Assembly: GCA_029570205.1 (NCBI GenBank)
Contig: JAKQSI010000109.1
Location: 1 to 64,000 of the forward strand
Source: Candidatus Omnitrophota bacterium
Lineage (GTDB): Bacteria > Hinthialibacterota > Hinthialibacteria > Hinthialibacterales > JAKPRU01
Direction of reading: 5' to 3'
DNA length: 64,000 nucleotides
The notes under the pieces were generated by a model. The model was given only the letters and a program-made list of their open reading frames with translations. It had not been told where the DNA came from and did no database searches. The translations under genes were made by a program, and so were the position numbers. This document shows, piece by piece, positions 6,700 to 13,493 of the stretch. Positions within the stretch are counted from its first letter, which is position 1, and each line of letters opens with the position of its first letter.

Positions 6700-7120
6700 C
6701 TGGAGTGCGGGAGCGTCAGCTCCCGCCTTCTGATTTGGCACACTATATCTTAACCAGCGAAAAGGCGAGAGCTGACGCTCCCGCACTTGCCCGCAACCGT
6801 CACTGCGAGCCTCCCTCCGGCGGGGGGCGCTCTTCGGAAAGCGAAAAGGCGGGAGCTGACGCTCCCGCACTTGCCCGCAACCGTCACTGCGAGCCTTCCT
6901 CCGGCGGGGCGCTCTTCGGAAAGCGAAAAGGCGGGAGCTGACGCTCCCGCACTTGCCCGCAACCGTCACTGCGAGCCTCCCTCCAGCGGAGCGCTCTTCG
7001 GAAAGCGAAAAGGCGGGAGCTGACCCTCCCGCACTTGCCCGCAACCGTCACTGCGAGCCTCCCTCCGGCGGGGCGCTCTTCGGAAAGCGAAAAGGCGGGA
7101 GCTGACGCTCCCGCACTCCA
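6700..7120. repeat. Tandem array of 82-84 bp units, each with a perfect hairpin
   Basis: Four contiguous units begin at 6757, 6841, 6923 and 7005 (84, 82, 82 and 82 bp), followed by a partial fifth at 7087. Each unit contains GCGGGAGC-TGAC-GCTCCCGC, an 8-bp stem with a 4-base loop (one copy has C for G in the right arm). An isolated inverted copy lies at about 6706-6727. Units differ by only a few bases, implying recent amplification. There is no unique spacer, so this is not CRISPR. The array fills the gap between the porin stop and the CPBP start and could limit readthrough or stabilise the porin mRNA 3' end. Confidence 0.9.
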
Positions 7121-9255: not shown

Positions 9256-12200
9256 ATGAATATGAGAAAGATGATTCTTGCTGCATACCCTCATCGCCGC
9301 CCCGGTATGAAATATGGCTTTGTCCTTCCACTGATCTTGTTGCTCTTGTTCTCCTCCTGTGCCGGTTTGAAAACCCGTCCAGGTCCCCAATCCCTTATGC
9401 CGGGCCACAAACAGCCCGCGGCGTTGACATCGGCGGCATCGGAAGAGCTTCCGCTTTGGCAACCGCTCCCGGATTCCGAATTTGAGAAGATTTTCCCTTA
9501 CGCACTGACCTACGATCCAAACACGGGAGTCCTGTTTTTCACGGATATTGTGAGCAATCGAGTTTGTTTTCGACGAGCGGACGGAACCTTCGGCATTGTT
9601 ACGGCCTCGTTGAGCCTTCAACTTTCTCTGCCGCTGGCCCTGGAGTGCATCGGCTCCACGACTCTCCTGGTTGCCGATACGGACAAGAAACGAATCAGCG
9701 CGATCATGCGGGAAGGAATTGCGCCGGATTTCATTTTAAGCAACGGGCGAATAACCGGTCTGGCCGTAGGGCCGGACCAGTCCGTGTATTACAGCGATTA
9801 TGATGCCTGCAATGTGGTTCGAGCGGCCTCGGACGGCACACAGACCATCGTAGCCGGAACCAGCGCTCCGGGATTCGCCGGCGATGGCGGTGACGCAAAA
9901 GCCGCCATGCTGAACGGTCCTTATGGCCTTGCTGTTTCTAACAATCGTCTTTTTATCGCCGACAGCCTGAATCACCGGATCCGTGTTCTGGATTTGGCCA
10001 CCAATCAGATCCAGACTTTTGCGGGGAATGGCGTGCGAGGCAAAGAGATTCCGGCATCTCCCGTGAGCGGATTGGATGTTGCGTTGAACGAACCTCGCGA
10101 CGTGGTCACCGATGCCCAGGGGAATGTGTATGTAATCAACACTTTCGGGCCTTCGATTCTCTGTTTCGATTCGGGCGGCCAGTTTATACCGGCCATGGTG
10201 AAAGCCACGTTCAGTGAAAATGCCCGTCCCGCGTGCGGGGTGGTGGTGGACGGTAATCTCGTTTATACGGATCTTGTGACACCGCAGCTGTTGCAGTCAC
10301 CGATTGCGGCGGCGGTTCCTCAGCCTCCTCCCCCACCGCCGGCGCCTCCGGCGGAAGCTGCTCCGGCGCAACCCGCGGCGGCCACAGAACCTCCTCCGCC
10401 TCCTCCCGCACCGACTCCCGAAACCATACCGGTGCCGGTCAGCACACCCCCCCCCGCCGCTCCGGCTGCCCCTGCGCCCCCGGCGTATACCCCACCCGGT
10501 ACAACCACATTGAAATTGGTCGGTCCGACCTGCATTGCCGGGATGCAATCGGCCTCCTACAGACTGGTATTGGACCTTGCGGCGAATGACCGTCTCGCTG
10601 CGGTCGTAGCACAGGTTCGTTTCGATCCCCAACAGATGCAAATCCGGTTTGCTGTGCCTCAACCCGGCTCACCACCGGAAACCCGTCAGGCCCATGTTTC
10701 CCAGGAGCAGGGTGTTGTCACGTTTTCTATGCACACCCGCGCGGGATCCGCGCCGCCCTCCGGGATGATCGAACTCTGCGAATTGCTGTTCGAATGTGTT
10801 GCGGACAAACAGACTCCGACGGTGATCCGATTTGAAGTGCCCGCGCCGACGGCGATTTCAGTCGATGGCGTTCCGGTCGCAACCACATCTCAGAACCTGG
10901 AAGTTCTGAACTTTCTATATGGCGATGTCAGCCGGGATAACAAAGTTGACCTGATGGACGCGCTCTTGCTGCTTCATCACGGCGAGCAATCCGAAGAATT
11001 GCCGGATCGCGAGGCTCCGCCTTCGGATAGTCTGCTTCTGATTGGTGATGTGGATCGTGACGGAACAATCACCCTCTCCGACTCTCTGGCGGTTATTCGG
11101 CTGGCTTACAACGGTCCCGCACTTCCAACAGCGCCACCTCGCGCCAAGTCTGCGTGGACCGATAAGGATATTCTTTTGCAGAATGCCCTGGTGCAGATTC
11201 CGGACGGGACCGATACGCTCGGTCTGACCGCCAAACCTGATCCGGAGAAAACCGCTCTGAAAACCGAATGGACCACAAAATTGAGCACGACCGGATCGGT
11301 CCTGTTTGTGAACGTTCCAAAATTTGTCCGACAGAACCAGCGCGAGCTTCTTTTGGATGTCATCCTCGGACTGCCGGATGGGGTTCGATTGGGAGCGTTC
11401 AGAACAGAGATCGACTTTGATCCGCAATGTGTGGCCGTGCAGAAAGTCCTGATTGACGATCAAGGTCCGCAGGCCATTCTGGGGAAATCGGAGGTCTCGG
11501 AAGGGCGGGTTTCGCTGGAGGGCGTATGCCGATTCCCCGGAGACGCGACCGATACAGTTGTGCGACTGGCGGGATTGCTGGTTACGTTGACACCCCCGGA
11601 GGATGGCGCAGATTGGGATACCCGTTTCGCCCCAACCGTAACCGAACTGCTGGATCATGATGGAAAGGCTTCATTCGGATTCGGGGTTCCCACTGTTTTG
11701 CGCAGCTATGAACCGGGCGATTTGACACGAGACGGCTCGGTGGATTCTCTCGACCTTGTTCTTCTCTGCGAATGCCTCACAGGGACATCAAGTTTCGATG
11801 ACCTTCGTTCAAAAAGCGCGGCGGATCTGGATGATGATGGGGAGTATACCATTCGGGATGCGGCGGTTCTTTCTGCACTGATAAAAGGAACGAATTTGTT
11901 CGATCCATTGACGCCGACCGGGAAACAGATCGTGGTTCGCCACGTCATCGACCGCCTCTTCACTGTGCCGCCGGTCGAGGAATCGGGATTGCTTCCCCCC
12001 ATGATCGACCTGCTGACACAGTCGACGGCGGGATTGACGCTCGATGCGGCTGTGAAAGATCATGGTATTTTCGAACTGGAGGGGCCATTCACTCCGGGCA
12101 AGGGAGGATTTTTCCTGTTTGCCTTGAAATACCGGCCCTATCCCGGCAGTTCGCTTGGGGGATATCAATTAGCCGTCGAGTGCAATCCGGCTCTCATTTC

Positions 12201-12735
12201 CATTCAAACTGTTCTTCCGGCCGCCTCGATGGAATCGGCGGGGAAACCGTTGATATCGAATATCACAGAAAACCGAGGTCGTGTTTTGTTGACTCAGCTG
12301 CCGGATTGGAAACCCGCCGAGGGCACGAGCGAGCTCCTGTTGGCCTCCATCCTGTGCCAAATGAAAGCGGATGCCGATGTTGCGCCGGTCAGCGCCACGT
12401 TCCGGCTGGTCAGCTATGGAGCCGTGGACCAGCAGGGAGAGCATGTCAAAACAATTTGTCCTTCTTACACGGTGTCGAATTACCTGCCGGGCGATGTAAA
12501 CCGGGATGGGTCCGTGGAAAGACTGGACGAGGCGCTGCTGACGCGATATGTAATCGGTGAGATCAGTATGGAGGATTTTGCGAATCCCGACGCGGCAGAC
12601 TTGAACCTTGACGGAAAGATCGATATGACCGACATTGTTCTGGTCGAGCAGGCCACTTTGGGAGATGTGGGGTATGATGCGTTGCGCCGCGCGCGTCGAG
12701 ACGAAGCCCTTAAGAAGGAACTCAAGACACAATGA
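9256..12735 (+). CDS. Large lipoprotein: NHL propeller plus three cohesin-like/dockerin-like module pairs
   Basis: 1159 residues from the ATG at 9256, chosen because AGGTGGAG lies 7 bases upstream; the longer frame to 9082 lacks coding character. A lipoprotein signal ends in LLLLFSSC (Cys35). Residues about 75-345 are NHL-type beta-propeller repeats (LNGPYGLAVSNNRLFIADS, LNEPRDVVTDAQGNVYV). A Pro/Ala-rich linker spans 352-415. Three modules follow, each a cohesin-like beta-sandwich (416-553, 678-815, 939-1075) and a dockerin-type calcium-loop pair: GDVSRDNKVDLMDAL with GDVDRDGTITLSDSL; GDLTRDGSVDSLDLV with ADLDDDGEYTIRDAA; GDVNRDGSVERLDEA with ADLNLDGKIDMTDIV. Probably an anchored surface protein; intramolecular or intermolecular module binding is inference. 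Its stop overlaps the next start as ATGA. Confidence 0.85.
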   Translation: MNMRKMILAAYPHRRPGMKYGFVLPLILLLLFSSCAGLKTRPGPQSLMPGHKQPAALTSAASEELPLWQPLPDSEFEKIFPYALTYDPNTGVLFFTDIVSNRVCFRRADGTFGIVTASLSLQLSLPLALECIGSTTLLVADTDKKRISAIMREGIAPDFILSNGRITGLAVGPDQSVYYSDYDACNVVRAASDGTQTIVAGTSAPGFAGDGGDAKAAMLNGPYGLAVSNNRLFIADSLNHRIRVLDLATNQIQTFAGNGVRGKEIPASPVSGLDVALNEPRDVVTDAQGNVYVINTFGPSILCFDSGGQFIPAMVKATFSENARPACGVVVDGNLVYTDLVTPQLLQSPIAAAVPQPPPPPPAPPAEAAPAQPAAATEPPPPPPAPTPETIPVPVSTPPPAAPAAPAPPAYTPPGTTTLKLVGPTCIAGMQSASYRLVLDLAANDRLAAVVAQVRFDPQQMQIRFAVPQPGSPPETRQAHVSQEQGVVTFSMHTRAGSAPPSGMIELCELLFECVADKQTPTVIRFEVPAPTAISVDGVPVATTSQNLEVLNFLYGDVSRDNKVDLMDALLLLHHGEQSEELPDREAPPSDSLLLIGDVDRDGTITLSDSLAVIRLAYNGPALPTAPPRAKSAWTDKDILLQNALVQIPDGTDTLGLTAKPDPEKTALKTEWTTKLSTTGSVLFVNVPKFVRQNQRELLLDVILGLPDGVRLGAFRTEIDFDPQCVAVQKVLIDDQGPQAILGKSEVSEGRVSLEGVCRFPGDATDTVVRLAGLLVTLTPPEDGADWDTRFAPTVTELLDHDGKASFGFGVPTVLRSYEPGDLTRDGSVDSLDLVLLCECLTGTSSFDDLRSKSAADLDDDGEYTIRDAAVLSALIKGTNLFDPLTPTGKQIVVRHVIDRLFTVPPVEESGLLPPMIDLLTQSTAGLTLDAAVKDHGIFELEGPFTPGKGGFFLFALKYRPYPGSSLGGYQLAVECNPALISIQTVLPAASMESAGKPLISNITENRGRVLLTQLPDWKPAEGTSELLLASILCQMKADADVAPVSATFRLVSYGAVDQQGEHVKTICPSYTVSNYLPGDVNRDGSVERLDEALLTRYVIGEISMEDFANPDAADLNLDGKIDMTDIVLVEQATLGDVGYDALRRARRDEALKKELKTQ

Positions 12736-13493
12736 AATTCATACATCCTGCGCGAAGAACGATTCGAGCATGGTCCGTTCGAATGGTTCTGATCTTATGG
12801 ACCACCGGAATCATGTTCTTGTGCGGAATCCGGATCGGTGCGCAAGCGGAGGGGACAACGCGCTGGAGCGAATTTTCGCTGGCGCGTTTCTTCGATTCGC
12901 CGGTTGTATTCTGGACGGTGATGGGGATTTTTGCAGCGTTTGTGCTGTTTTCCGTCATTGTCGCGATTCGTACCTCCGTGCTGGAAAAACGAGCGGCATC
13001 CTGGGCCGGAGAAAAATGTTTGTCGGAGTTGGTGGACGCCTTGACGACGCCGGATGCGATTCATGCATTCGTGCATCTGCGCAAGTTGCGGAGCGAACGT
13101 CTTTATTCGAAATTGCTGAAACGGCTCCCCGGGAAAGAGGCGGCGCACCAAGTACAGATTCTGCTGGCGGATTTGCCTGTCGAGAATGATCGAAAGGCGC
13201 TTGAGGAAGAATTGCTTTCGGTAAAATTGAATCGCAAGGCGCGCCGAAAACCGTTGGCCCGGCTTTTTGACGAGCGGGATGAAATCCTTCGACGCCTGTT
13301 GATGCAGTCGTTAAGGCAGGCCAAGACCGGCGGTCCCGTAAATGTCTACCTGATCTATCTATTAGAGGATCTGGGAGCGACCGAGGCACGGCCCATACTC
13401 GAACGATTACTTGGCACCGGCGAAATCCCATCGACGATTCTTCAGAACGCCTTGCGGCGAATCCCACAAGCCCAGGAAGCCAAAGCGAAATAG
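12732..13493 (+). CDS. Two-TM protein with helical C-terminal domain, unknown function
   Basis: 253 residues. A basic N-terminus precedes a first hydrophobic helix (about 18-38), and a second spans about 58-83 (VVFWTVMGIFAAFVLFSVIVAI). The rest is soluble and charged, with helical repeats resembling HEAT-like pairs (LVDALTTPDAIHAFVHLRKL, LLEDLGATEARPILERLLG). The ATG overlaps the stop of the cohesin/dockerin lipoprotein as ATGA, so the two are co-translated and probably work together at the envelope. I do not recognise a family. Confidence 0.75.
   Translation: MKFIHPARRTIRAWSVRMVLILWTTGIMFLCGIRIGAQAEGTTRWSEFSLARFFDSPVVFWTVMGIFAAFVLFSVIVAIRTSVLEKRAASWAGEKCLSELVDALTTPDAIHAFVHLRKLRSERLYSKLLKRLPGKEAAHQVQILLADLPVENDRKALEEELLSVKLNRKARRKPLARLFDERDEILRRLLMQSLRQAKTGGPVNVYLIYLLEDLGATEARPILERLLGTGEIPSTILQNALRRIPQAQEAKAK

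What the first reader, a model, noticed from the sequence alone, without database searches (positions are those of the whole stretch)
9256..12735. Single lipoprotein carrying three alternating cohesin-like and dockerin-like modules behind an NHL propeller
Dockerin calcium loops occur in three paired sets, each after a cohesin-like beta-sandwich, in one membrane-anchored chain. In cellulosomes the two partners lie on separate proteins. Having both in one polypeptide with a propeller and a Pro-rich stalk suggests head-to-tail polymerisation or a self-locked rigid surface filament. It is co-translated with a two-TM protein of unknown function.
Basis: partly seen in the sequence, partly recalled or inferred. 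Interest (0 to 1): 0.74.

Follow-up and report, generated by a model that had tools for sequence, protein, structure and literature searches.

The report
Lipoprotein with three cohesin–dockerin pairs
This bacterial surface protein carries three copies each of two modules best known for plugging into each other in cellulose-degrading complexes; the modules are real, but having both on one chain is common in this bacterium's relatives and known elsewhere, so it is an unusual arrangement of known parts and not a new system.

Summary
Dockerins: Pfam 1.4e-26, six canonical loops against 0.0005 expected in shuffles. Pfam's cohesin model misses the sandwiches, but three further tests call them cohesins: a 90-domain cohesin profile built without the window finds this ORF (3.9e-10, next ORF 0.76) at the three sandwich positions; an AlphaFold2 model of unit 3 matches solved cohesins (Z 15.4, 2.1 Å over 131 residues); a control model of unit 2, using only the window's own three copies, does too (Z 14.2). 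"Partners on separate proteins" is not a rule: adaptor scaffoldins, a proposed planctomycete complex and ANME archaea carry both on one chain, and so do nine ORFs in six relatives. Polymerisation or self-locking has no direct support. The downstream two-TM gene overlaps here (ATGA), but its homologues in the sister family sit beside NAD synthetase. Best reading: a non-cellulosomal surface adaptor, with a self-clasped stalk the main rival. The strict threefold alternation on a propeller lipoprotein is an unusual variant of a known kind.

The parts
9256..9360 (+). Signal peptide ending in a lipobox-like LFSSC (Cys35)
   Evidence: Read from the translation; same motif in the congener orthologue. 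F at -3 is atypical.
9451..10305 (+). NHL beta-propeller region, residues about 66-350
   Evidence: Pfam NHL 1.5e-5; phmmer to NHL propellers in solved structures
10306..10506 (+). Proline-rich stalk, residues about 351-417
   Evidence: Sequence itself
10507..10914 (+). Cohesin-like module 1 (418-553)
   Evidence: 90-domain cohesin profile, 20.3 bits at 441-549
10918..11100 (+). Dockerin 1 (555-615)
   Evidence: PF00404 4.5e-6; loops at 557 and 598
11293..11706 (+). Cohesin-like module 2 (680-817)
   Evidence: Profile 9.0 bits; model with window-only alignment matches cohesin 1g1k at Z 14.2
11713..11877 (+). Dockerin 2 (820-874)
   Evidence: PF00404 4.6e-9; loops at 822 and 857
12061..12480 (+). 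Cohesin-like module 3 (936-1075)
   Evidence: AlphaFold2 unit-3 model pLDDT 85.5; cohesin Z 15.4, 2.1 A over 131 residues. Sequence profile alone gives only 0.2 bits
12487..12651 (+). Dockerin 3 (1078-1132)
   Evidence: PF00404 3.9e-12; double-dockerin 8x39 Z 11.2, 31% identity over 68 residues
12732..13493 (+). Downstream two-TM protein, start overlapping the lipoprotein stop (ATGA)
   Evidence: no Pfam family over its cut-off; homologues in the sister family lie after NAD synthetase. Association only, no functional evidence

Best explanation
A non-cellulosomal surface adaptor. The protein is exported and lipid-anchored, most likely to an outer membrane. It displays a propeller, a stiff proline-rich stalk and three cohesin-dockerin units. 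The most likely mechanism is calcium-dependent cross-linking: its cohesins capture dockerin-bearing secreted proteins and its dockerins plug into cohesin-bearing secreted proteins, both of which this genome encodes, so it would tie several surface proteins together. Shown: the modules, their order, their folds by prediction, and the existence of separate candidate partners. Inferred: lipidation, surface exposure, calcium binding, and every cohesin-dockerin interaction.
For: Dockerins and cohesin folds established. The genome has at least four other ORFs with Pfam-level cohesins and two other dockerin proteins. One of those dockerin proteins lies directly upstream of a cohesin protein, and the same gene pair is in a congener. 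The three copies differ in sequence (18-25% identity) and at recognition positions, as expected if they bind different partners. The neighbouring gene encodes a probable outer-membrane alginate-export-type porin, which points to a diderm cell. Proteins with both modules act as adaptors in cellulosomes (PMC11557425).
Against: No binding has been shown or modelled between any pair. The linker from each cohesin to its own dockerin is only a few residues, which could favour an intramolecular unit; pTM 0.76 for unit 3 hints at a defined packing. Only two other dockerin proteins were found, few for a three-cohesin adaptor. The partner proteins have no known activity.
Confidence: 0.45

Rival explanations
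1. Self-clasped stalk: each dockerin docks inside the same chain, onto its own cohesin or, through the 50-60 residue linker, onto the next one, giving a calcium-stiffened rod that holds the propeller away from the membrane.
For: Strict one-to-one pairing; very short cohesin-dockerin linkers; 50-60 residue linkers between units; pTM 0.76 for the two-domain unit.
Against: The models give no interface evidence, and a linker of a few residues may not let a dockerin reach the canonical face of its own cohesin. Separate partner proteins exist in the genome.
Confidence: 0.28
2. Homotypic assembly: the dockerins of one molecule bind the cohesins of another, giving head-to-tail or side-by-side filaments.
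For: Both partner types are on one chain in equal number.
Against: Copies are only 18-25% identical and recognition positions differ; the membrane anchor restricts head-to-tail growth; no pilus-like or polymerising precedent was found in the papers searched.
Confidence: 0.12
3. The modules serve only as stable calcium-binding spacers and no longer bind each other or anything else.
For: The cohesins are too diverged for Pfam and the recognition positions are not conserved.
Against: All six calcium loops are intact and the N-terminal 425 residues are under purifying selection (the module region itself could not be tested because the orthologue's contig ends).
Confidence: 0.15

Closest known systems
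Adaptor and complex primary scaffoldins of Acetivibrio and Ruminococcus cellulosomes (PMC11557425, PMC4959524)
   Same: Cohesins and dockerins on one secreted, non-catalytic chain
   Different: No strict one-to-one alternation is described in the passages read; part of a system with many dockerin enzymes; no NHL propeller or lipid anchor known to me
Planctosome adaptor proposed in freshwater Planctomycetes (PMC6461901)
   Same: Non-cellulosomal; dockerin and cohesin on one chain
   Different: One dockerin, one cohesin and a HYR domain; proposed peptidase complex; itself hypothetical
ANME archaeal cohesin/dockerin proteins (PMC9012536) and L113 here
   Same: Several cohesins and a dockerin on one chain, non-cellulolytic
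   Different: One dockerin per chain in the described cases; archaeal; no propeller
Relatives in the same class: G005:C98, G005:C87, G008:C64, G003:C59, G004:C62
   Same: ORFs mixing cohesins and dockerins, with Pro/Thr-rich stalks in the two read in full (L050, L051)
   Different: At most two Pfam cohesins and two dockerins, in other orders; no NHL propeller in the ones scanned

Membership tests
Type I dockerin (PF00404) | Profile match above the curated cut-off | tested here: met
   92.9 bits against 22.9; three stretches
Type I dockerin (PF00404) | Two calcium-binding loops per module with D/N/S/T ligands | tested here: met
   Six loops, all with Asp at positions 1, 5 and 12
Type I dockerin (PF00404) | Calcium-dependent binding to a cohesin | not testable with these tools
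   Needs binding assays
Cohesin (PF00963) | Pfam profile match above the curated cut-off | tested here: not met
   No hit at E<=1; hence described as cohesin-like, not filed as Pfam cohesin
Cohesin (PF00963) | Homology to cohesins by a more sensitive profile | tested here: met
   90-domain profile built without the window: ORF E 3.9e-10, next ORF in the window 0.76; module 1 20.3 bits, module 2 9.0, module 3 0.2. A profile from outside the class alone is not significant (0.19)
Cohesin (PF00963) | Cohesin-type beta sandwich | tested here: met
   Predicted models of unit 3 (Z 15.4) and unit 2 (Z 14.2, alignment free of other cohesins) match solved cohesins first. Module 1 was not modelled
Cohesin (PF00963) | Binds a dockerin | not testable with these tools
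   Needs binding assays
Cellulosome | Several dockerin-bearing plant-cell-wall enzymes in the genome | tested here: not met
   Only two other dockerin ORFs found in a 93%-complete genome, with no enzyme domain recognised by Pfam
Cellulosome | Scaffoldin with a cellulose-binding module | tested here: not met
   No such Pfam domain in this protein

The most novel reading that the evidence does not exclude
The three cohesin-dockerin pairs close on themselves within the chain and form a calcium-set rigid rod or latch that presents the propeller, so that cohesin-dockerin recognition is used as an intramolecular structural lock and not for docking separate proteins.
Probability: 0.25. Interest if true: 0.6.

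Novelty: new variant of a known kind. Interest (0 to 1): 0.36.

Why it matters
It adds a clear case of cohesin and dockerin modules used outside cellulose degradation, in an uncultured lineage where mixing them on one chain is common. If the pairs lock within the chain, cohesin-dockerin binding would have a structural role not usually ascribed to it, and this three-pair protein would be a compact system to test that.

Tried and rejected
Pfam and NCBIfam for a cohesin call on the sandwiches: no hit. Profile of the three sandwiches against PDB sequences: no hit. hhalign of the three sandwiches against eight relatives' cohesins: E 4.2e-4 but probability only 34%, inconclusive alone. A cohesin profile made only from outside the class: not significant. 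First guesses at orthologues in relatives (G004:C42, G005:C53, G007:C56) were dropped: the one read, G005:C53, is a membrane protein with a C-terminal NHL region. Absence of the gene in congener G001 is not evidence: its contigs break in both flanking genes. Promoter and terminator counts did not exceed shuffles. Unrelated Ig or CBM fold for the sandwiches: rejected, because cohesins lead every fold list and other sandwiches rank below them.

Full report
What was checked. The ORF at 9256-12735 (+) gives a 1,159-residue protein. A good ribosome-binding site lies before the ATG. A congener (G002) holds a 95% identical copy of residues 1-425 up to the end of its contig, and the two copies differ mainly at silent sites (65.5 synonymous against 21.5 non-synonymous differences, dN/dS 0.10). 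In another congener (G001) the contigs break in both flanking genes, so the locus falls in an assembly gap.

Modules. Pfam finds three type I dockerins (1.4e-26) and an NHL repeat. The dockerin loops are complete: six of them, with Asp at positions 1, 5 and 12. Shuffling the protein gives 0.0005 such loops on average, so chance is excluded. The stalk between propeller and units is Pro-rich.

The sandwiches. They are too diverged for Pfam's cohesin model and share only 18-19% identity with the third copy. A profile of the three found the second cohesin of a protein from the same order, L051 (iE 2.3e-6), which Pfam does call a cohesin. I then built a cohesin profile from 90 domains of other loci, leaving out the window and its congener copies. 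Among the window's ORFs it finds only this one, at 3.9e-10, with the next at 0.76, and its three matches fall on the three sandwiches. Module 1 carries most of that score and module 3 almost none by sequence.

Fold. AlphaFold2 of unit 3 with a 25-sequence alignment gave pLDDT 85.5 and pTM 0.76. The best solved matches are cohesins (Z 15.4, 2.1 A over 131 residues), and the dockerin half matches a double dockerin (Z 11.2). Because that alignment contained known cohesins, I ran a control: unit 2 with only the window's own three copies. Its sandwich was again predicted with fair confidence (blocks of 60-90) and again matched cohesins first (Z 14.2, 2.8 A over 127). Its dockerin half was poorly modelled with so few sequences. 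Module 1 was not modelled.

Is one chain with both unusual? No. In some searches, nine ORFs in six of the 13 relatives (G003, G004, G005 three times, G006, G008 twice, G011) have a cohesin and a dockerin in the same frame and open reading frame; one of these cohesins is just under the cut-off. Outside the class the same is seen in Paenibacillus and a Methanoperedenaceae archaeon. Published cases are adaptor scaffoldins (PMC11557425), ANME proteins with up to five cohesins and a dockerin (PMC9012536) and the proposed planctosome adaptor (PMC6461901). What I did not see elsewhere is three strict cohesin-dockerin pairs in a row on a propeller lipoprotein; the wider databases were not searched exhaustively for that order.

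Surroundings. The two-TM gene overlaps the stop codon by ATGA, so coupling is plausible. Its homologues in five genera of the sister family lie directly after NAD synthetase, so the partnership is not conserved there. The divergent neighbour is an alginate-export-type porin, consistent with an outer membrane. Elsewhere in the genome a dockerin protein sits directly before a cohesin protein, and the pair recurs in G001.

Mechanism. The three dockerins differ at the positions that set specificity in known type I dockerins (my knowledge of the family; residues), and the three cohesins differ as much. That fits different partners better than one repeated self-contact, so I favour an adaptor (0.45), with an intramolecular clasp next (0.28). 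No step of binding is shown. The prediction tool returned no interface scores, so the question stays open.

Verdict. Observation confirmed; interpretation partly supported; a new variant of a known kind, of moderate interest.

Noticed in passing
L052:4289-7048 (G000:C99) and L162 (G001:C756): A short Pro/Thr-rich dockerin protein gene lies directly before a Pro/Thr-rich cohesin protein gene, and the pair is conserved in a congener: a likely two-protein cohesin-dockerin system.
   Followed up: partly
window 12732-13493 and L068-L072: Homologues of the two-TM gene in five genera of the sister family follow an NAD synthetase gene; in L068 the cluster starts with gyrB.
   Followed up: partly
window 6756-7117: Tandem array of an 82-base unit, 4.4 copies at 96% match, between a CAAX-type protease gene and the porin gene.
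   Followed up: no
L055:6190-8181 (G000:C86): A 664-aa protein with a Pfam cohesin and a second probable sandwich, preceded by a Gly/Ser/Tyr/Arg-rich low-complexity region.
   Followed up: no
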